From: Brucella haematophila
GTDB taxonomy: Bacteria > Pseudomonadota > Alphaproteobacteria > Rhizobiales > Rhizobiaceae
Direction: 5' to 3'
Length of the DNA: 64,000 bases
Assembly (NCBI RefSeq): GCF_005938105.1
Contig: NZ_VCPE01000014.1
Span: 62,001 to 126,000, forward strand
Shown here piece after piece: positions 9,747 to 17,775 of this stretch (its first letter is position 1; the number at the start of each line of letters is the position of its first letter). A model generated the notes under the pieces. It ran no database searches. It saw nothing but the letters and a program-made list of their open reading frames with translations, and was not told the origin of the DNA. The position numbers were made by a program, and so were the translations under genes.

Positions 9747-11039
9747 ATGGGTGTTGAAGTAACGCGTCTTCCCAACGGGTTGACGATAGCCACCGATACC
9801 ATGTCACATGTGGAAAGCGTGGCGCTGGGAATCTGGGTTAAAGCTGGCGCGAGAAACGAAGCCGCCGACCGGCACGGTATAGCTCACTTACTCGAACATA
9901 TGGCCTTCAAGGGCACGGAAAACCGCACTGCCTGGCAAATTGCATCGGATATCGAAGATGTCGGCGGCGAGATCAATGCCGCTACCAGCGTCGAAACCAC
10001 ATCCTATTATGCCCGCGTGATGCGCGATGACATGCCGCTCGCCATCGATATTCTCTCCGACATCCTGACCGCATCGAAGTTCGACGAAGACGAACTTGAG
10101 CGCGAGAAGCAGGTGATCATGCAGGAGATCGGCGCAGCGCATGACACGCCGGACGATATCGTCTTCGACCGTTTCACCGAAACCGCCTATCGTCACCAGC
10201 CCATCGGCCGCGCCATTCTCGGCGAGCCGGACACGGTGATGTCCTTTTCCTCTGCCGACCTGCGCCAATATATGGACGAGCAGTACAGCGCCGACCGCAT
10301 GGTCGTGACGGCTGCCGGCGGCGTGGACCACGATGCTTTCGTCAAGGAAGTTGAAAAGCGTCTCGGCGGCTTCCGCGCCCATAACACGGCGCCGACCCTT
10401 GACCTTGCGACCTATGTCGGCGGCGATTTCCGCGAAAACCGCGAATTGATGGATGCGCAGGTTCTGATCGGCTTTGAAGGCCGTGCCTATCATGTGCGTG
10501 ACTTCTACGCCTCGCAGCTCCTGTCCATGGTACTGGGCGGCGGCATGTCCTCGCGTCTGTTCCAGGAAGTGCGCGAAAAGCGCGGCCTGTGCTATTCGGT
10601 CTATGCGTTCCACTGGGGCTTTTCGGATACGGGCCTGTTCGGCATCCATGCCGCCACGGGTCGCGACGAACTGGTCGAACTGGTTCCGGTCATCATTGAC
10701 GAACTGCACAAGGCAGCGGATTCGATCAGCATCGAAGAAGTCAATCGCGCCCGCGCGCAATATCGCGCCAGCCTTCTCATGTCGCAGGAAAGTGCGGCCA
10801 GCCGCGCAGGCCAGCTTGCCCGCCAGTTCCTGCTTTATGGCCGCCCGGTCGACAATAACGAGCTGATGGAACGTCTTTCCCTGATCACGCCGGAACGCCT
10901 GACGGATCTCGCAGGTCGCCTGTTCCTCGACAACAAGCCGACCATCGCAGGCGTCGGTCCGGTTGGCCGCCTGATGAGCTTTGACGATCTGTCCGATGCG
11001 CTTTCAACCAATGCGCATAAGAGGAAGATAGCTGTTTAA
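9747..11039 (+). CDS. M16-family zinc metalloprotease (processing-peptidase-like)
   Basis: 430 residues. The inverted zinc motif HLLEH is at residues 47-51 and the probable third ligand is E127 in VIMQEIG, the 76-residue spacing typical of M16B enzymes. The fold is two repeated lobes; the second half carries GGGMSSRLFQEVREKRGLCY. Relatives are single-chain, cytosolic or periplasmic peptidases akin to the beta subunit of mitochondrial processing peptidase; no signal peptide is visible here. The ATG at 9747 is chosen over an in-frame ATG at 9681 because AGGGAG lies 10 bases before it and family homology begins there (MGVEVTRLPNGL). Its stop abuts an octamer-repeat element. Confidence 0.93.
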   Translation: MGVEVTRLPNGLTIATDTMSHVESVALGIWVKAGARNEAADRHGIAHLLEHMAFKGTENRTAWQIASDIEDVGGEINAATSVETTSYYARVMRDDMPLAIDILSDILTASKFDEDELEREKQVIMQEIGAAHDTPDDIVFDRFTETAYRHQPIGRAILGEPDTVMSFSSADLRQYMDEQYSADRMVVTAAGGVDHDAFVKEVEKRLGGFRAHNTAPTLDLATYVGGDFRENRELMDAQVLIGFEGRAYHVRDFYASQLLSMVLGGGMSSRLFQEVREKRGLCYSVYAFHWGFSDTGLFGIHAATGRDELVELVPVIIDELHKAADSISIEEVNRARAQYRASLLMSQESAASRAGQLARQFLLYGRPVDNNELMERLSLITPERLTDLAGRLFLDNKPTIAGVGPVGRLMSFDDLSDALSTNAHKRKIAV

Positions 11040-11040
11040 G

Positions 11041-11131
11041 GCAGTAGGGGAATAAGGGAATAGGGGAGTATGTGGCCGTGAAGATTTCGTTTTTCCTATT
11101 CCCCTACTCACCTATTCCCCTACTCCCCTAA
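11041..11131. repeat. Inverted octamer-repeat element 1
   Basis: The left arm has octamers GGGGAATA, AGGGAATA and GGGGAGTA; after a ~24-bp spacer the right arm carries their complements (TATTCCCC, TACTCACC, TATTCCCC, TACTCCCC). The arms can pair into a long hairpin. A related element lies at 16078-16253. Brucella genomes are known for octamer VNTRs (HOOF-Prints, AGGGCAGT); these units have the same length but a different sequence. Confidence 0.85.
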
Positions 11132-11136
11132 CTCCA

Positions 11137-11757
11137 ATGATCGGCCTGTCGTTCCGGCGCAATAATCCGACTATTCTGCGTGGACCGCGCATTTATCTGC
11201 GCGAGCCCATGATGGGCGATTTTGCGGGCTGGTCCAATTTGCGTGAGCAAAGCCGGGCCTTTCTGTCTCCATGGGAGCCGACCTGGCCCGACGACGATCT
11301 GACGAAAAGCGCCTTCCGCTACCGGATGCGGCGTTTTCAGGAAGAAATTTCTGCCGGAACCGGCTATCCTTTCTTCATTTTCCGCAACAGCGACAACCGC
11401 ATTCTCGGCGGTATCACGCTCGGCAATATCCGCCGCGGAGTAGGACAGAACGGCATGATCGGCTATTGGAGCGGCGCTCCTTTCGCGGGCAAAGGCTATA
11501 TGACAGAGGCACTGTCTCTGGTTATCCCCTTTGCATTCGACCAACTGCGGTTGCACAGGGTTGAAGCTGCCTGTATTCCCCATAATGTACGTTCGGTCCG
11601 GCTTCTCGAAAAAGCCGGATTTCAGAGAGAAGGACTGTTGCGCTCCTATCTCAAGATAAATGGCTTCTGGCAGGACCACCTGCTGTTTGCCCTCATAGAA
11701 AGCGACAAACGTATGTTGGATAGCCGCATGATCAATGGCAAGGTTGAACGCTCGTGA
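11137..11757 (+). CDS. GNAT-family N-acetyltransferase (RimJ/RimL-like)
   Basis: 206 residues. The acetyl-CoA pocket is visible around NGMIGYWSGAPFAGKGYMTEAL (about residues 107-128), followed by IPFAFDQLRLHRVEAACIP and the late ARSVRLLEKAGF-like segment NVRSVRLLEKAGF. This arrangement is that of RimJ-like enzymes that acetylate protein N-termini or small amines; the substrate is unknown. The start codon has no Shine-Dalgarno: the octamer element ends six bases before it. The 3' end overlaps the next gene by four bases (GTGA), so the pair is likely co-transcribed and translationally coupled. Confidence 0.88.
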   Translation: MIGLSFRRNNPTILRGPRIYLREPMMGDFAGWSNLREQSRAFLSPWEPTWPDDDLTKSAFRYRMRRFQEEISAGTGYPFFIFRNSDNRILGGITLGNIRRGVGQNGMIGYWSGAPFAGKGYMTEALSLVIPFAFDQLRLHRVEAACIPHNVRSVRLLEKAGFQREGLLRSYLKINGFWQDHLLFALIESDKRMLDSRMINGKVERS

Positions 11758-14651
11758 GGGGTCTTTCTGAAAAGCTTTTCCAGAACGCCGCGCGTTTTCT
11801 CGCGCTGATCGTCCTTCTGGCCTTTTCGACCGTCCATGCGTCTGCCGTCGAACCGATCAAGATATCCAAGGACGACACCGCCCTTGATCTGTCGCGCGCC
11901 GTTGAACTTATCCGCAACAAGGGTGAAAGCGTTCAGGTTTCCACCGCGCCCGGCCCCGATGGCATCGTGCGCCGCATCGAAGTGCAGGCCGACCAGAACA
12001 GCAATGCATCCGGCGACTGGGCTGCTTTCTCCATCGCCAATCCGACCGACCAGCAGATCGACCGCCTGATCGTCGCGCCGCATTTCCGTCTCGTCGGTTC
12101 CGGCATCATCTGGCCTGATCTCGGCTCGCCGCGTATTGCGTCGATCACCCCCAGCGAAGGCTTTGCGCTCGACCGCCAGCCAAGCGCCGACGCGGATGTG
12201 TTCCGCATCACGATCAATCCGGGCAGCGTCGTCACCTTCGTCGCCGAGCTTTCCTCGCATAATCTGCCGCAGCTCTACCTGTGGGAACCGGAAGCCTACA
12301 AGGACACCGTCAATTCCTACACGCTCTATCGCGGCATCCTGCTTGGCATTTCAGGCCTGCTGGCGCTGTTTCTGACCATTCTTTTCGTCGTCAAGGGCAC
12401 CTCGTTGTTCCCCGCCACGGCAGCGCTGGCCTGGGCGGTTCTCGCCTATATCTGCGTCGATTTCGGGTTCTGGAACAAGCTGATGGAAATCACGCCCGGA
12501 AACGAACAGATATGGCGGGCGGGCACAGAGGTGGCGCTGGCCGCGTCGCTGGTGATTTTCCTCTTCGCCTATCTCAACCTCAACCGCTGGCACGACCATT
12601 TCAGCTATGGCGCGGTGACATGGGTTCTGGGCTTGCTGGCGCTTGCTGGCGTTGCGGTTTTTGATCCACCCATCGCTTCGGGCATTGCCCGTATTTCGCT
12701 CGCACTCACCGTCGTTTCCGGCGTCGCAATCATCGGCTATCTCGCGGTGAAGGGATATGACCGGGCGGTCATGCTGATACCCGCCTGGCTTCTCACATTA
12801 ATATGGCTGCTCGGCGCATGGATGGCCGTCACCGGTCGCCTCGATAATGACATTGTCCAACCGGCGCTTGGCGGCGGCCTCGTTCTCATCGTGCTTCTGA
12901 TCGGCTTTACCGTCATGCAGCACGCCTTTGCAGGCGGCGCGCTCCAGCAAGGGCTGCTGTCCGACATGGAACGGCAGGCGCTCGCCGTCATCGGTGCGGG
13001 CGATATCGTCTGGGACTGGGATGTGCCGCGCGACCGCGTGGTCACGACGCCGGACATCGCCAACCAGCTCGGCAATACGGCAAGCAGTTTGCAGGGTCCG
13101 GTGCGCAACTGGCTGCCGGTCATGCATTCCGACGACCGTGATCGTTTCCGCTCGACGCTCGACGCCATTCTGGAAAACCGTCGCGGACGCATCGGCCAGA
13201 TCTTCCGCCTGCGCGCCAATGACGGCCATTACCATTGGTATGCGCTGCGTGCCCGTCCGGTGATCGGTTCGGATGGCGAAGTCGTGCGTTGCGTCGGCAC
13301 GCTGGTCAACGTGACCGAACAGAAGAAAGCCGAAGAGCGTCTGCTGCACGATGCCGTACACGACAATCTGACCGGCCTGCCCAATCGCGAGCTTTTCCTC
13401 GACCGTCTGAGCAATGTGATGAACATGGCGCGCGGCGAGAACAATCTGCACCCGACCGTGTTCATGATCGATATCGACCGCTTCAAGCAGGTCAATGATA
13501 GTCTGGGCATGTCGGCGGGCGACACGATCCTTCTGACCATTTCGCGCCGGCTGGCCCGCCTGATGAAGCCACAGGACACGCTGTCGCGTCTGTCTTCCGA
13601 CCAGTTCGGTTTGCTGCTTGCCTCCGAAAGCGATCCGGGTCGCATCGCAGCCTTTGCGGAAGCGCTGCGTCAGGCCACCCGCGCGCCGATTGCCTATGCC
13701 AAGCGCGAGATCGTTCTGACTGCCTCTGTCGGCCTCATCACCTGGACGAAAACCGCAACCACGGCGGAAGATTTCGTGAAGGATGCGGAACTGGCCATGT
13801 ATCAGGCCAAGCGCTTTGGCGGCGACCGGATTGAGCCGTTCCGCCCGGCTTTCCGCGCCATCGGCAGCGACAAGCTGCAGCTTGAATCCGATCTGCGCCG
13901 CGCACTTGAACGTGATGAAATCAGCATGGCCTACCAGCCAATCGTCAAGCTCGACGAAGGCACCATCGCCGGTTTCGAAGCGCTGATGCGCTGGGAACAT
14001 CCGCGCCGTGGCGCAATCTCTCCGTCGGAATTCATTCCGATTGCCGAGAATTCCGGCCTGATCGTGCAGCTTGGCCTTTTTGCGATACAGCGCGCCGCCG
14101 AAGACCTGTTCGCCTGGCAGGAACAGTTCCCGAAGCTCGACCTGTTCGTCTCGGTCAACCTGTCTTCCACGCAACTGATCCGGCAGGATCTCATCAACGA
14201 TGTCCGCTCCGTGCTGTCGCGTATTCACCTCAATCCGGGCAGCCTGAAGCTGGAACTGACCGAATCCGTCCTCATGGAAAATCCAGAGCAGTCAGCCCAT
14301 GTGCTGGCCCGCCTCAAGACCATGGGGATTGGCCTGTCGCTGGATGATTTCGGCACCGGCTATTCGTCGCTCGCCTATCTGACGCGCTTCCCGTTCGACA
14401 TCATCAAGATCGACCGCTCCTTCGTGAAGGGTGACCAACCACAGAAGACCACTCTGCTGCGTTCCATCGTCAGCATGGCGCATGATCTGGGTCTGGCGGT
14501 GGTGACGGAAGGTGTGGAGAGCGAAAGCGATGCGCTCCAGCTTCGCCAGATGGGCTGCGAATATGTGCAGAGCTTCATGTTCGGCCAGCCGACCAGCCGC
14601 GAAGATGCCACCCGCATGATCAAGGAACAGCTGGAAGCAGCGGCGGCGTGA
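11754..14651 (+). CDS. Membrane sensor with PAS, degenerate GGDEF and EAL domains (c-di-GMP phosphodiesterase)
   Basis: 965 residues, GTG start overlapping the upstream stop. Domains in order: signal peptide (1-~30), periplasmic domain resembling 7TMR-DISM extracellular domains (~35-190), seven or so hydrophobic helices (~195-405), PAS with PAC (~415-525), GGDEF-like (~530-690) and EAL (~700-955). The GGDEF catalytic loop reads SSDQF (residues 614-618), so cyclase activity is unlikely. The EAL part is intact: EALMRWE (E742), [37 protein letters not shown] phosphodiesterase at the inner membrane, perhaps tuned by the degenerate GGDEF, is expected. It may correspond to BpdA of B. melitensis. 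A broken copy of its 3' end lies at 15916-16072. Confidence 0.92.
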   Translation: MRGLSEKLFQNAARFLALIVLLAFSTVHASAVEPIKISKDDTALDLSRAVELIRNKGESVQVSTAPGPDGIVRRIEVQADQNSNASGDWAAFSIANPTDQQIDRLIVAPHFRLVGSGIIWPDLGSPRIASITPSEGFALDRQPSADADVFRITINPGSVVTFVAELSSHNLPQLYLWEPEAYKDTVNSYTLYRGILLGISGLLALFLTILFVVKGTSLFPATAALAWAVLAYICVDFGFWNKLMEITPGNEQIWRAGTEVALAASLVIFLFAYLNLNRWHDHFSYGAVTWVLGLLALAGVAVFDPPIASGIARISLALTVVSGVAIIGYLAVKGYDRAVMLIPAWLLTLIWLLGAWMAVTGRLDNDIVQPALGGGLVLIVLLIGFTVMQHAFAGGALQQGLLSDMERQALAVIGAGDIVWDWDVPRDRVVTTPDIANQLGNTASSLQGPVRNWLPVMHSDDRDRFRSTLDAILENRRGRIGQIFRLRANDGHYHWYALRARPVIGSDGEVVRCVGTLVNVTEQKKAEERLLHDAVHDNLTGLPNRELFLDRLSNVMNMARGENNLHPTVFMIDIDRFKQVNDSLGMSAGDTILLTISRRLARLMKPQDTLSRLSSDQFGLLLASESDPGRIAAFAEALRQATRAPIAYAKREIVLTASVGLITWTKTATTAEDFVKDAELAMYQAKRFGGDRIEPFRPAFRAIGSDKLQLESDLRRALERDEISMAYQPIVKLDEGTIAGFEALMRWEHPRRGAISPSEFIPIAENSGLIVQLGLFAIQRAAEDLFAWQEQFPKLDLFVSVNLSSTQLIRQDLINDVRSVLSRIHLNPGSLKLELTESVLMENPEQSAHVLARLKTMGIGLSLDDFGTGYSSLAYLTRFPFDIIKIDRSFVKGDQPQKTTLLRSIVSMAHDLGLAVVTEGVESESDALQLRQMGCEYVQSFMFGQPTSREDATRMIKEQLEAAAA

Positions 14652-14808
14652 TACGCCTACAAGGCAAATCCACCTTTTGAAGGATCAGATCACGGCCTTC
14701 TTTCGCGGCAATGATCGCGCCCGGATTTGGTATACCCGCGGTTTAAGAAACTGCTTTCTGACGACGACATTTCAGATCAAAGGTCTCGTATAATCTCGAC
14801 ACGAAATT

Positions 14809-15732
14809 TTACTTAAGTTTTACGGTCATAGTTCCATTGATTATACGTATATCGAATCTTTCGGCCACCTCATCTCCGACGATTTGCCTGTCATCAATAT
14901 ACAGGTAACCACCTTCTTGAAAGAAAGCCGCTCCAAATCCTGCAAGCCCAACCATTATCAGCTTTCCTTTGTTCTCGATCGGATTTCGTTGATTATCGGT
15001 CACTCTGAATATAAATTTCACATTAACAGGCGGCCCGCTGGTAAAGTCTATTGGAAACCTATTGTCATAAGCAGATATTTTTAATGACGCATCATATACA
15101 TTGCTATCATAAATCTCTTCTTTATCATCCAGAGACTGGCCTATATAAAACTTAAAAATGGGTGGTTTTTCATTAATCACTACTGTAGAAAATGACATAT
15201 TTGGTGAAGTAATTTCAATTTTTGAATTGTTCATGACAGATATATCTGTATTCAGAAGCTCCATAGTATAACTATCATTTATGTTTCCATAAACATTCAT
15301 TTTCAATTTTGAATTATCTTTTAACCTAATAGATCCACATAAATACAATTTCTGATTTGTATTTATTTCTATATAGCTAATTGATTTTGCTTCAATATCA
15401 CCAGATTCTAAAATAAAAAAACCAATAAATATTTTTAGGATGCCATCATTATGAGTATTTATCCATCCATTAAATTGTTGAAAGTTAGTTTTTGCAACTT
15501 CATCGCCATAACGTAAGCACAGTGTTCCATGTAATATTTCAACTGACGGTTTTTCCCAACTTATGGTACTCATATTTCCTTGCGCAAGAAGATTCAATTC
15601 ACCATCCATATTAACAGTTAATGATCCCTGATCTAATTCGAACGGGAAATCCGAACAATCGACAAATGTCTGACCAGCATATGTATCGTCAAATACATTA
15701 CCACCATACATATCCCATGGGAAATCACTCAT
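14809..15732 (-). CDS. AT-rich orphan protein, beta-rich, unknown function
   Basis: About 307 residues from ATG 15732 (MSDFPWDMYGG), which has GGAG seven bases upstream; an in-frame ATG at 15744 lacks one. I recognise no family. The protein is rich in alternating hydrophobic/polar strands and Asn/Asp/Gly turns (SKLKMNVYGN, NSKIEITSPN, GTMTVKLK), suggesting a beta-helix or beta-sandwich; there is no signal peptide or membrane helix. Base composition is foreign: for example only 12 of 60 bases at 15361-15420 are G or C, while neighbours are GC-rich. It lies inside a disturbed duplication of the EAL 3' end and has its own AT-rich upstream region. Recent horizontal acquisition is likely; an effector, surface or defence role cannot be supported. 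Confidence 0.7.
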   Translation of the reverse strand: MSDFPWDMYGGNVFDDTYAGQTFVDCSDFPFELDQGSLTVNMDGELNLLAQGNMSTISWEKPSVEILHGTLCLRYGDEVAKTNFQQFNGWINTHNDGILKIFIGFFILESGDIEAKSISYIEINTNQKLYLCGSIRLKDNSKLKMNVYGNINDSYTMELLNTDISVMNNSKIEITSPNMSFSTVVINEKPPIFKFYIGQSLDDKEEIYDSNVYDASLKISAYDNRFPIDFTSGPPVNVKFIFRVTDNQRNPIENKGKLIMVGLAGFGAAFFQEGGYLYIDDRQIVGDEVAERFDIRIINGTMTVKLK

Positions 15733-15767
15733 TAAAATCTCCATAATATTGTTTAAATAACATTGAT

Positions 15768-15795
15768 ACTATATTAATAATGTAAATACTTTAAA
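15768..15795 (-). promoter_or_regulatory. Possible sigma70-type promoter of the orphan gene
   Basis: Read on the minus strand, TTTAAA (15790-15795) and TATAGT (15768-15773) are 16 bases apart, about 36 bases before the chosen start codon. The surrounding DNA is very AT-rich, so chance matches are easy. Confidence 0.3.
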
Positions 15796-15857
15796 ACTGG
15801 CACTTTTTGCAGCAATATTCTATCTCACAAGAAGATGATGGGCTGAAGCTGTTGAAG

Positions 15858-15921
15858 CCCAAGCCACTCTTATCGGAGGGGAGAAAATAGAGACCGCCGA
15901 CCCGAGAAAGCGCTCGTCGCT
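15858..15921. pseudogene. Short remnant resembling part of yqgE
   Basis: Bases 15893-15921 match 16748-16776 inside yqgE at 23 of 29 positions without gaps, in the same orientation, and weaker similarity extends left (shared ATCGGA). It runs into the broken EAL copy at a GTC(G/A)CT microhomology. It looks like a decayed remnant of a duplicated yqgE; the short length makes this tentative. Confidence 0.45.
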
Positions 15922-16072
15922 GGATGATTTCGGCACCGGCTATTCGTCGCTCGCCAATCTGGCGCGCTTCCCGTTCGACATCATCAAGATCGACCACTCC
16001 TTCGTGAAGGGTGACCAACCGCGAAGAGGCACCCGCATGATCAAGGAACAGCTGGAAGCAGCGGCGGCGTGA
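15916..16072 (+). pseudogene. Broken copy of the 3' end of the GGDEF/EAL gene
   Basis: Bases 15916-16020 match 14336-14440 almost exactly (same offset of 1580). A 158-bp internal segment (14441-14598) is missing, joined at the similar sequences GACCAACC and GACCAGCC, and the copy then continues to the same TGA with a one-base deletion (GAAGAGGCACC for GAAGATGCCACC). It encodes only a fragment of the EAL active site and cannot be functional. Confidence 0.92.
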
Positions 16073-16077
16073 AGTTA

Positions 16078-16173
16078 GGGGAATAGGGGAATAGGGGAAT
16101 AGGGGAATAGGGGAATAGGGGAATAGGGGAATAGGGGAATAGGGGAATAGGGGAATAGGGGAATAGGGGAATA
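16078..16173. repeat. Twelve perfect tandem copies of GGGGAATA
   Basis: Twelve uninterrupted 8-bp units starting at 16078, 16086 and so on to 16166. Perfect short tandem arrays of this kind change copy number by slippage, so this is a probable VNTR. It begins five bases after the stop of the broken EAL copy and forms the left arm of the second inverted octamer element. Confidence 0.97.
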
Positions 16174-16253
16174 AAAACCGAATCAGATGAGCTGAAGCAA
16201 GTCCTTTTGACCTACTCCCTTACTGCCCTATTCCCCTACTCCCTTACCTCACG
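16174..16253. repeat. Spacer and right arm of inverted octamer element 2
   Basis: After a ~40-bp spacer the complements of the octamers appear at 16210-16249 (TACTCCCT, TACTGCCC, TATTCCCC, TACTCCCT). One unit reads ACTGCCCT, the exact complement of the HOOF-Print octamer AGGGCAGT. The arm overlaps the 3' end of yqgE (stop at 16249). Architecture matches element 1 at 11041-11131. Confidence 0.8.
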
Positions 16254-16851
16254 CATGTCCCGCATCGGAAACCAGCCGCGACATGTCGATGCCCATATGC
16301 ATCATGAGGCGCGAATATTTGCCTTCGATGTCGCTGTCGAAAAGCATGTCGAGCGGCGCATCGCAGCATAGCCAGCCATTGTCGGCCAGCTCGGCTTCAA
16401 GCTGCCCCGGCGCCCAGCCGGAATAACCCAGCGCCATCAAAACCTGCGCCGGACCCTTGCCGCCATAAATAGCGCGCAGAATATCGACCGTTGCGGTCAG
16501 GCAGACCTCTTCAGAAACCGGCATGGTGGAATCGACCATGTAATCGTCGGAATGCAGCACAAAGCCGCGCGTGCGATCCACCGGCCCGCCGTTGCGCACC
16601 ATCATATGCTGTGTGCGCTCGGGCAGTATAATCAGCTCATCCTCGTCAATCACGCCAATCTGGCGCAGAATATCCGGGAACCCGATCGGCTGAAGCTGGT
16701 TGATGATGAAGCCCATCGCGCCCTCATCGGAATGGGCGCAGATATAGACCACCGACCGGGCAAAACGCTCGTCACTCATGCCGGGCATGGCAAGCAGGAA
16801 TTGCCCGTTCAAGAACCCCTGCTCCTGGTTTGGCTTACGCATCGTGGTCAT
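16249..16851 (-). CDS. YqgE/AlgH family protein (UPF0301)
   Basis: 200 residues. Family features: N-terminal [40 protein letters not shown], then the GGPV turn and the segment [19 protein letters not shown] near residue 155, all characteristic of DUF179. It is cytosolic with no known enzymatic residues; relatives have been linked to alginate regulation in Pseudomonas (AlgH), but no biochemical role is established for most. The stop codon lies inside the right arm of the octamer element. A short decayed similarity to this gene lies at 15893-15921. It is divergent from the DsbD-N-like gene. Confidence 0.92.
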
Positions 16852-16983: not shown

Positions 16984-17775
16984 ATGAAAACACGCTTGAA
17001 CATTCTCGCTCTCGGCTTGCTGGCAGCCTCGGCTTTGCCAGCGTACGCTTCGACCTCCGCCTGGACGGAAACCCCCGGCGGGCGTGTGCGCGTCATCATT
17101 GAGGATGGTACGGTTTCGGCTGAAGCCGGGCCTGGGCGCGAGATACGCGGCGCGTTGCAGATCGAGTTGCAGCCGGGATGGAAAACCTACTGGCGCAATC
17201 CGGGCGATGCTGGTGTGCCGCCACAGATCAATCTCGATGGAAACGCCAACGCCCAGATCGATTATCCCGCGCCGGTGCGGTTCGGTGGTGACGACGATGG
17301 CATCGGCTATAAGAAGCCGGTTTCTCTGCCCATCATCTTCAAGCTGCAGCCCAATGACACCCGCCTCAAGGGCCATGCCTTTCTCGGCGTTTGCGAACAT
17401 ATCTGCATTCCCGTGCAGGCAGAGTTCGACTTCCCCGTGAGTGAAAGCGCTGAATCCGCCGAGCCGCAGGCTATTGCTGCGCGCACCATCGTGGAAACAG
17501 CCTTCGGGCGTCTTCCTGCAACCGCTTCTCCCACTTTCGGTGTCAGTGCCGTGAAGCGTGATGAGGAAACCGCAATCTTCACATTGGCCGTGCCGGACCC
17601 GAAAGCGCCTGCCGAGCTTTTTGTCGCCAGCGACAAGCTTCGCCTCTCCGATCCGGTCGCCTCCGATGGCCACAACTTCACTATAAAAGTCAAGGGTGAT
17701 GCGCGGTATGCAACCGTCGACTACACCATCGTGCAGAATGGCAAGGCAGTGTCAGGACAGGTCACACTCGACTGA
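16984..17775 (+). CDS. DsbD N-terminal-domain-like periplasmic thiol protein
   Basis: 263 residues. A signal peptide (MKTRLNILALGLLAASALPAYAS) is followed by an Ig-like beta domain resembling the DsbD alpha domain: GWKTYWRNPGDAG and the cysteine pair in GVCEHICIPVQAEF near residue 140. In DsbD this pair passes electrons to periplasmic substrates; here the transmembrane and thioredoxin domains of DsbD are absent, so the protein must take electrons from another partner or serve a different role such as copper or cytochrome maturation. A small ATG start at 16984 follows the divergent gap with yqgE. Confidence 0.85.
   Translation: MKTRLNILALGLLAASALPAYASTSAWTETPGGRVRVIIEDGTVSAEAGPGREIRGALQIELQPGWKTYWRNPGDAGVPPQINLDGNANAQIDYPAPVRFGGDDDGIGYKKPVSLPIIFKLQPNDTRLKGHAFLGVCEHICIPVQAEFDFPVSESAESAEPQAIAARTIVETAFGRLPATASPTFGVSAVKRDEETAIFTLAVPDPKAPAELFVASDKLRLSDPVASDGHNFTIKVKGDARYATVDYTIVQNGKAVSGQVTLD

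What the first reader, a model, noticed from the sequence alone, without database searches (positions are those of the whole stretch)
14652..16072. Decayed tandem duplication with a foreign gene lodged inside
The 3' end of the GGDEF/EAL gene is present twice (14336-14651 intact, 15916-16072 broken) and a remnant similar to yqgE (15893-15921, 23 of 29 matching 16748-16776) lies just before the broken copy. The order EAL-end / [AT-rich insert] / yqgE remnant / EAL-end / octamers / yqgE is what a tandem duplication of 'EAL end-octamers-yqgE' would give after the first yqgE decayed and an AT-rich gene entered. The gene itself (14809-15732) has no family I recognise and base composition far from its neighbours.
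Basis: partly seen in the sequence, partly recalled or inferred. Interest (0 to 1): 0.75.

Follow-up and report, generated by a model that had tools for sequence, protein, structure and literature searches.

The report
Orphan gene islet beside yqgE
A foreign, AT-rich gene of unknown family sits between two ordinary bacterial genes beside broken copies of its neighbours; one related species has a very different version of the same gene at exactly the same spot, so the spot looks like a small insertion hotspot rather than the result of one tidy duplication.

Summary
The 3' end of the GGDEF/EAL gene is present twice: intact at 14336-14651, and shortened by 159 bases at 15916-16072. The orphan gene X (14809-15732, minus strand, 307 aa, 33% GC) matches no family in Pfam, PHROGs, NCBIfam or PADLOC above cut-off and no PDB sequence.

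In the genus, 32 of 33 other genomes with a measurable interval have a short, empty spacer. The exception is Ochrobactrum teleogrylli. It carries X at the same site and orientation, without the duplication. The X proteins share 112 of 298 aligned residues; the flanks are about 90-93% identical in DNA over kilobases. Both X genes have GC3 0.27, against 0.75 in the EAL gene.

The remnants look unequally old (3 of 148 substitutions against 19 of 85), which a single duplication does not explain unless gene conversion refreshed the EAL copy. I favour a hotspot insertion of X with an already decaying yqgE piece, joined at a 6-base microhomology. Function is unproven; a low-confidence model is all-beta and solenoid-like.

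The parts
11754..14651 (+). intact GGDEF/EAL gene (7TMR-DISM_7TM, PAS, GGDEF, EAL), left flank; its end 14336-14651 is copy 1 of the repeat
   Evidence: Pfam EAL 1.2e-70, GGDEF 1.1e-36; repeat
14652..14808 (.). spacer between EAL stop and the 3' end of X; no octamers; no clear relation to EAL, yqgE or the O. teleogrylli islet; matches only the own genome among 100 searched
14809..15732 (-). orphan gene X, 307 aa, 33% GC; one homologue found, in O. teleogrylli LCB8 at the same site
15733..15836 (.). AT-rich upstream region of X with GGAG before the start; promoter-like match at 15768-15795, number of such matches in the region no better than chance
15837..15921 (-). decayed yqgE fragment (counterpart of 16684-16776), substitutions spread over the codon positions 6:5:8
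15916..16072 (+). truncated copy 2 of the EAL-gene end, 159 bases shorter; shares the alleles of copy 1 except 3 private substitutions in 148 ungapped sites; 15916-15921 (GTCGCT) belongs to both remnants
16076..16249 (.). octamer array (AGGGGAAT, 12 direct strict octamers) plus inverted partial array, predicted to form a long hairpin between the convergent genes
16249..16851 (-). intact yqgE (AlgH-like, DUF179), right flank
   Evidence: Pfam 1.1e-46; found in 34 of 35 genus genomes

Best explanation
The spacer between the convergent GGDEF/EAL gene and yqgE is a minor insertion hotspot, and gene X is a horizontally acquired AT-rich accessory gene lodged there. Shown: X is foreign in composition; a strongly diverged homologue sits at the same site and orientation in O. 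teleogrylli; 32 of 33 other genomes have an empty site; the yqgE and EAL remnants differ in divergence and meet at a 6-base overlap. Inferred: X arrived in this lineage on DNA that already carried a decaying piece of yqgE. That DNA recombined through the EAL gene on one side and joined at the GTCGCT/GTCACT microhomology on the other (homology on one side, illegitimate joining on the other). The old EAL end, octamers and yqgE were thereby displaced rather than replaced. Donor and recipient must have had nearly the same EAL end, that is, one species; otherwise the two EAL ends were homogenised later by gene conversion. X most likely makes a soluble, all-beta, solenoid-like protein with an accessory role in dealings with phages or competitors; this functional step is a guess.
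For: Homologue at the same site without duplication. 32 of 33 other genus genomes empty, intervals of 6-233 bases. X proteins 112 of 298 aligned residues identical, third positions different in 171 of 298 codons, both GC3 0.27, EAL gene GC3 0.75; flanks 92.8% (left) and 90.2% (right) identical in DNA to O. teleogrylli over 5.7 and 6.7 kb. Remnant divergence 3 of 148 against 19 of 85. Eight third-position differences in the yqgE remnant, seven of them alleles present in other sequences of the genus, fit a source other than this genome's present yqgE. Displacement by homology-facilitated illegitimate recombination is proposed for T6SS immunity-gene arrays (PMC5361080, passages seen) and reported for E. 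coli conjugation (PMC3240628, start of abstract in listing).
Against: EAL copies 1 and 2 agree at all 148 compared sites except three private changes in copy 2, and share the allele T14432 seen in none of five other species. A donor from another lineage should have differed, so the model needs a conspecific donor or gene conversion. The remnants are short (85 and 148 sites). The only ORF of 80 aa or more inside the islet is X and the islet matched no plasmid, so nothing found explains why the same site was used twice; target-site duplications were not looked for beyond the repeat scan. Two occurrences are few for the word hotspot. Function rests on one two-sequence model with mean pLDDT 43.5; the second model, led by the homologue, was worse at 31.3.
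Confidence: 0.5

Rival explanations
1. One reading: a tandem duplication of EAL end-octamers-yqgE arose in this lineage, then X replaced the first octamer spacer and most of the first yqgE, and the EAL copy later lost 159 bases.
For: Direct orientation and order; microhomology at the junction; copy 2 shares all lineage alleles of copy 1 apart from three private changes.
Against: The two remnants should be equally old but differ at 2% and 22% of sites. X sits at the same place in O. teleogrylli without any duplication; the flanks of that islet scored no better than shuffles against the EAL end, and in one of eight tests weakly against yqgE (4 of 200 shuffles as good). It needs gene conversion of the EAL copy to survive.
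Confidence: 0.25
2. X was present at this site in the ancestor of the clade, diverged fast in place, and was lost cleanly in the sister species.
For: Same site, same orientation, open in both; nucleotide differences fall least on second codon positions, 145:111:171.
Against: Three nearer relatives (G030, G016, G024) have the octamer spacer and no X. Both X genes kept GC3 0.27 although third positions are strongly diverged, so divergence probably took place in an AT-rich background; selection for AT was not tested.
Confidence: 0.17
3. The duplication is an assembly artefact.
For: Repetitive octamers next to it and a draft assembly of 55 contigs.
Against: The second copy has its own substitutions and a 159-base loss, and the yqgE fragment is heavily changed; a misassembly would be expected to give identical copies. 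O. teleogrylli carries an X at the site independently.
Confidence: 0.03

Closest known systems
Chromosomal hotspots of horizontal gene transfer between core genes (PMC5635113; title and start of abstract seen in listing)
   Same: accessory DNA at one interval between conserved genes, empty in most relatives examined, no mobility gene seen in the insert
   Different: only one small gene family seen here, two occurrences, and left-over pieces of the flanking genes
Displacement by homology-facilitated illegitimate recombination, as proposed for V. cholerae T6SS effector-immunity arrays (PMC5361080, passages seen)
   Same: new DNA set between a homologous anchor and the older local sequence, which is pushed aside and kept in part
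   Different: no effector, immunity or secretion gene recognised; the displaced parts are ends of core genes; no strain series to show the steps
Brucella HOOF-print octamer repeats, AGGGCAGT (PMC7589603, one passage seen)
   Same: octamer arrays at this spacer: AGGGCAGT-type in several sister species, AGGGGAAT here
   Different: they belong to the ordinary spacer (13 of 32 empty spacers have strict octamers), not to X
Parallel beta-helix / beta-solenoid folds (pectate lyases, TPS domains, tailspikes)
   Different: no sequence relation to any PDB chain; no Sec signal or membrane stretch by a simple hydropathy scan

Membership tests
Hotspot of horizontal transfer | conserved flanking genes with empty interval in most relatives | tested here: met
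   32 of 33 other genus genomes with interval 6-233 bases
Hotspot of horizontal transfer | repeated, different insertions at the same interval | tested here: inconclusive
   two insertions, homologous but 38% identical; only one genome per species available
Single tandem duplication followed by decay | both remnants equally old | tested here: inconclusive
   3 of 148 against 19 of 85 speaks against it, but gene conversion of the EAL copy is not excluded
Homology-facilitated illegitimate insertion | microhomology at one end | tested here: met
   GTCGCT shared by both alignments, 5 of 6 bases in native yqgE; a tandem duplication would show the same
Homology-facilitated illegitimate insertion | donor tract detectable at the homologous end | tested here: inconclusive
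   the EAL end is marginally nearest to O. teleogrylli (96.8%, against 96.2% G030 and 94.3% G016), unlike the rest of the flanks, but there is no clear switch and both EAL copies share alleles
Parallel beta-helix proteins | solenoid of beta strands | tested here: inconclusive
   mean pLDDT 43.5 and 31.3; generic beta-helix matches
Known defence, phage or curated protein families | profile match above cut-off | tested here: not met
   no match in PADLOC, PHROGs or NCBIfam up to E 1; Pfam only Gp30.7 at E 0.11, below cut-off

The most novel reading that the evidence does not exclude
The EAL-yqgE spacer is a dedicated exchange site for a fast-diversifying family of AT-rich orphan genes, known so far from two genomes, in which alleles as different as 38% identity are swapped behind nearly identical flanks, as expected for a protein facing phages or competitors.
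Probability: 0.25. Interest if true: 0.55.

Novelty: new member of a known kind. Interest (0 to 1): 0.35.

Why it matters
It shows how a single foreign gene can settle between two core genes without any recognised mobility gene, leaving pieces of apparently different age as a record. It also defines a small protein family without further relatives in the libraries and collections searched here. If more strains show different X alleles at this site, the locus would be a compact natural system for studying allele exchange at a hotspot.

Tried and rejected
Relatives of X: none in plasmids or phages by tblastn. A 70-residue C-terminal piece gave one plasmid match at E 10 (AIM24 family protein, 30% of the query), taken as chance. 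No plasmid match by distant blastn of 14640-15930. No relative in four viral contig scans. Genome contigs: of 83 stretches that matched a pattern, 1 encodes a relative, O. teleogrylli; the two patterns used there came from the N-terminus only, so more distant relatives could be missed. The genome search, own genome included each time: 2 of 100 relatives, 2 of 394 in the family, 1 of 397 in the order, 1 of 398 in the phylum, 2 of 385 in the class. The second class hit is a 19-bit match inside a 722-aa ORF that I recognise from memory as malate synthase G, rejected. In the genus at E up to 10, nine weak places at E 0.17-1.02 besides the two X genes. Two were read: the one on G021 contig 1 overlaps a 264-aa ORF that looks like a membrane protein, and the G024 one lies in a 449-aa ORF that I recognise from memory as enolase; five more in other genomes match nearly the same profile positions (about 276-317) and were not read. 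All taken as chance. These samples overlap and hold one genome per species.

A diverged functional yqgE as the only source of the remnant: not favoured, because 11 of its changes occur in none of the 30 aligned genus sequences and substitutions are spread over the codon positions. The remnant keeps an allele present in 5 of 30 sequences (alignment index 90), so it probably comes from within the genus; which five was not checked.

Mosaic donor tract in the EAL gene: no clear switch. The flank 14652-14808 scored against yqgE and its upstream with 13 of 200 shuffles as good, not taken as a relation. Hydrophobic periodicity for a solenoid: weak, best z 2.0 and 2.2. Terminator-like sites in 14600-16300: none by the simple scan. 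Viral fold search: 0 matches at E 0.001 or better, 152 at E up to 10. The second structure job did not improve the model. A family that VIA-align did not list is not excluded.

Full report
What is there. Between the stop of the GGDEF/EAL gene (11754-14651, +) and yqgE (16249-16851, -) lie, in order: a 157-base spacer, orphan gene X (14809-15732, -), an AT-rich upstream stretch, a yqgE fragment (15837-15921), a shortened second copy of the EAL-gene end (15916-16072), and the octamer array with its inverted partner (16076-16249). The yqgE fragment is about three times longer than reported: 66 of 85 aligned bases identical, gaps of 1 and 7, score 78 against at most 32 in 1000 mononucleotide shuffles. 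It also matched yqgE of four other genus genomes in a search of 100.

Comparison with relatives. The window's genome has 5.5 Mb and belongs to a genus with 35 held genomes. Through its named match that genus includes Ochrobactrum teleogrylli, which NCBI places in the Brucella/Ochrobactrum group. yqgE was found in 34 of 35 genomes; G013, rated 72% complete, gave none. Of the 33 other than the window's own, 32 have 6-233 bases between the EAL gene and yqgE and one, G021, has 1314. Strict octamers occur in 13 of the 32 short spacers, including those of the three nearest relatives G030, G016 and G024, and in none of the G021 interval. G006 has yqgE in two pieces. It carries X (319 aa) in the same orientation, directly between EAL and yqgE, with no second EAL end. 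Its flanks match the window at 92.8% and 90.2% over 5.7 and 6.7 kb, whereas the two X proteins share 112 of 298 aligned residues. G030, G016 and G024, nearer to the window than G021 over these flanks, have no X.

X is a real gene. Both homologues are open, begin after a GGAG-type site, and differ least at second codon positions (145:111:171). GC3 is 0.27 in both, against 0.75 in the EAL gene. After so much third-position change inside a GC-rich host the composition should have drifted towards the host, so I infer that the divergence happened in an AT-rich setting and that the two X genes arrived separately or from a shared AT-rich pool. Silencing or selection for AT could also keep GC3 low; that was not tested.

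Age of the remnants. Over 148 ungapped sites the second EAL end differs from the first at 3, all private and at codon positions 1, 1 and 2; at the other variable sites it has the allele of the first, including one (T14432) absent from five compared species. This leaves out the gapped stretch 16021-16029. The yqgE fragment differs at 19 of 85 sites, codon positions 6:5:8: 11 differences occur in none of 30 aligned genus sequences, the other 8 are alleles seen elsewhere in the genus. Fisher tests: p = 6e-7 for all differences, p = 0.001 for the private ones. One duplication event would make both remnants equally old. Either the yqgE piece came earlier or from another lineage, or the EAL copy was refreshed by gene conversion. 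The junction of the two pieces lies in six bases that fit both (GTCGCT; native yqgE GTCACT). The 159-base shortening of the EAL copy lies at near-identical eight-base repeats (GACCAACC / GACCAGCC), as slippage would give.

Mechanism. I judge most likely an insertion anchored by homology in the EAL gene and closed by illegitimate joining, which pushed the older EAL end, octamers and yqgE aside. This type of event is described for other bacteria (PMC3240628, start of abstract; PMC5361080, passages). The agreement of the two EAL ends means that donor and recipient were of one species, or that conversion occurred later. The EAL end is marginally nearest to O. teleogrylli (96.8%, against 96.2% for G030), a hint of a donor tract but no more. 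X is the only ORF of 80 aa or more in the islet, and the islet has no plasmid match. The 161 bases around 14650-14810 match only the own genome among 100, and the flanks of the two islets are hardly more alike than shuffles (72 of 500 and 30 of 500 as good). In one of eight tests the upstream flank in G021 scored against yqgE with 4 of 200 shuffles as good, too weak to call a remnant.

Verdict. The feature is real. It is a small hotspot insertion of a known kind, with an orphan family as the interesting part.

Noticed in passing
window 11036-11131: A second octamer array with inverted part lies between an ORF ending at 11039 (it looks like an M16-type peptidase, from memory) and the next ORF, starting at 11137; the exact double octamer AGGGGAATAGGGGAAT occurs at six places in the genome.
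   Followed up: partly
L026, L027, L028, EAL-yqgE spacer: Three species (G034, G019, G026) carry mutually similar spacers of about 132-144 bases with an inverted repeat and no octamers.
   Followed up: no
window 16984-17775: The gene next to yqgE is less conserved than its surroundings: identity per 500 bases falls to 81% with G021 and to about 71% with G028.
   Followed up: no
L048 (G006): yqgE is split into two overlapping pieces in this genome, which is rated only 69% complete; it may be a frameshift or an assembly error.
   Followed up: no
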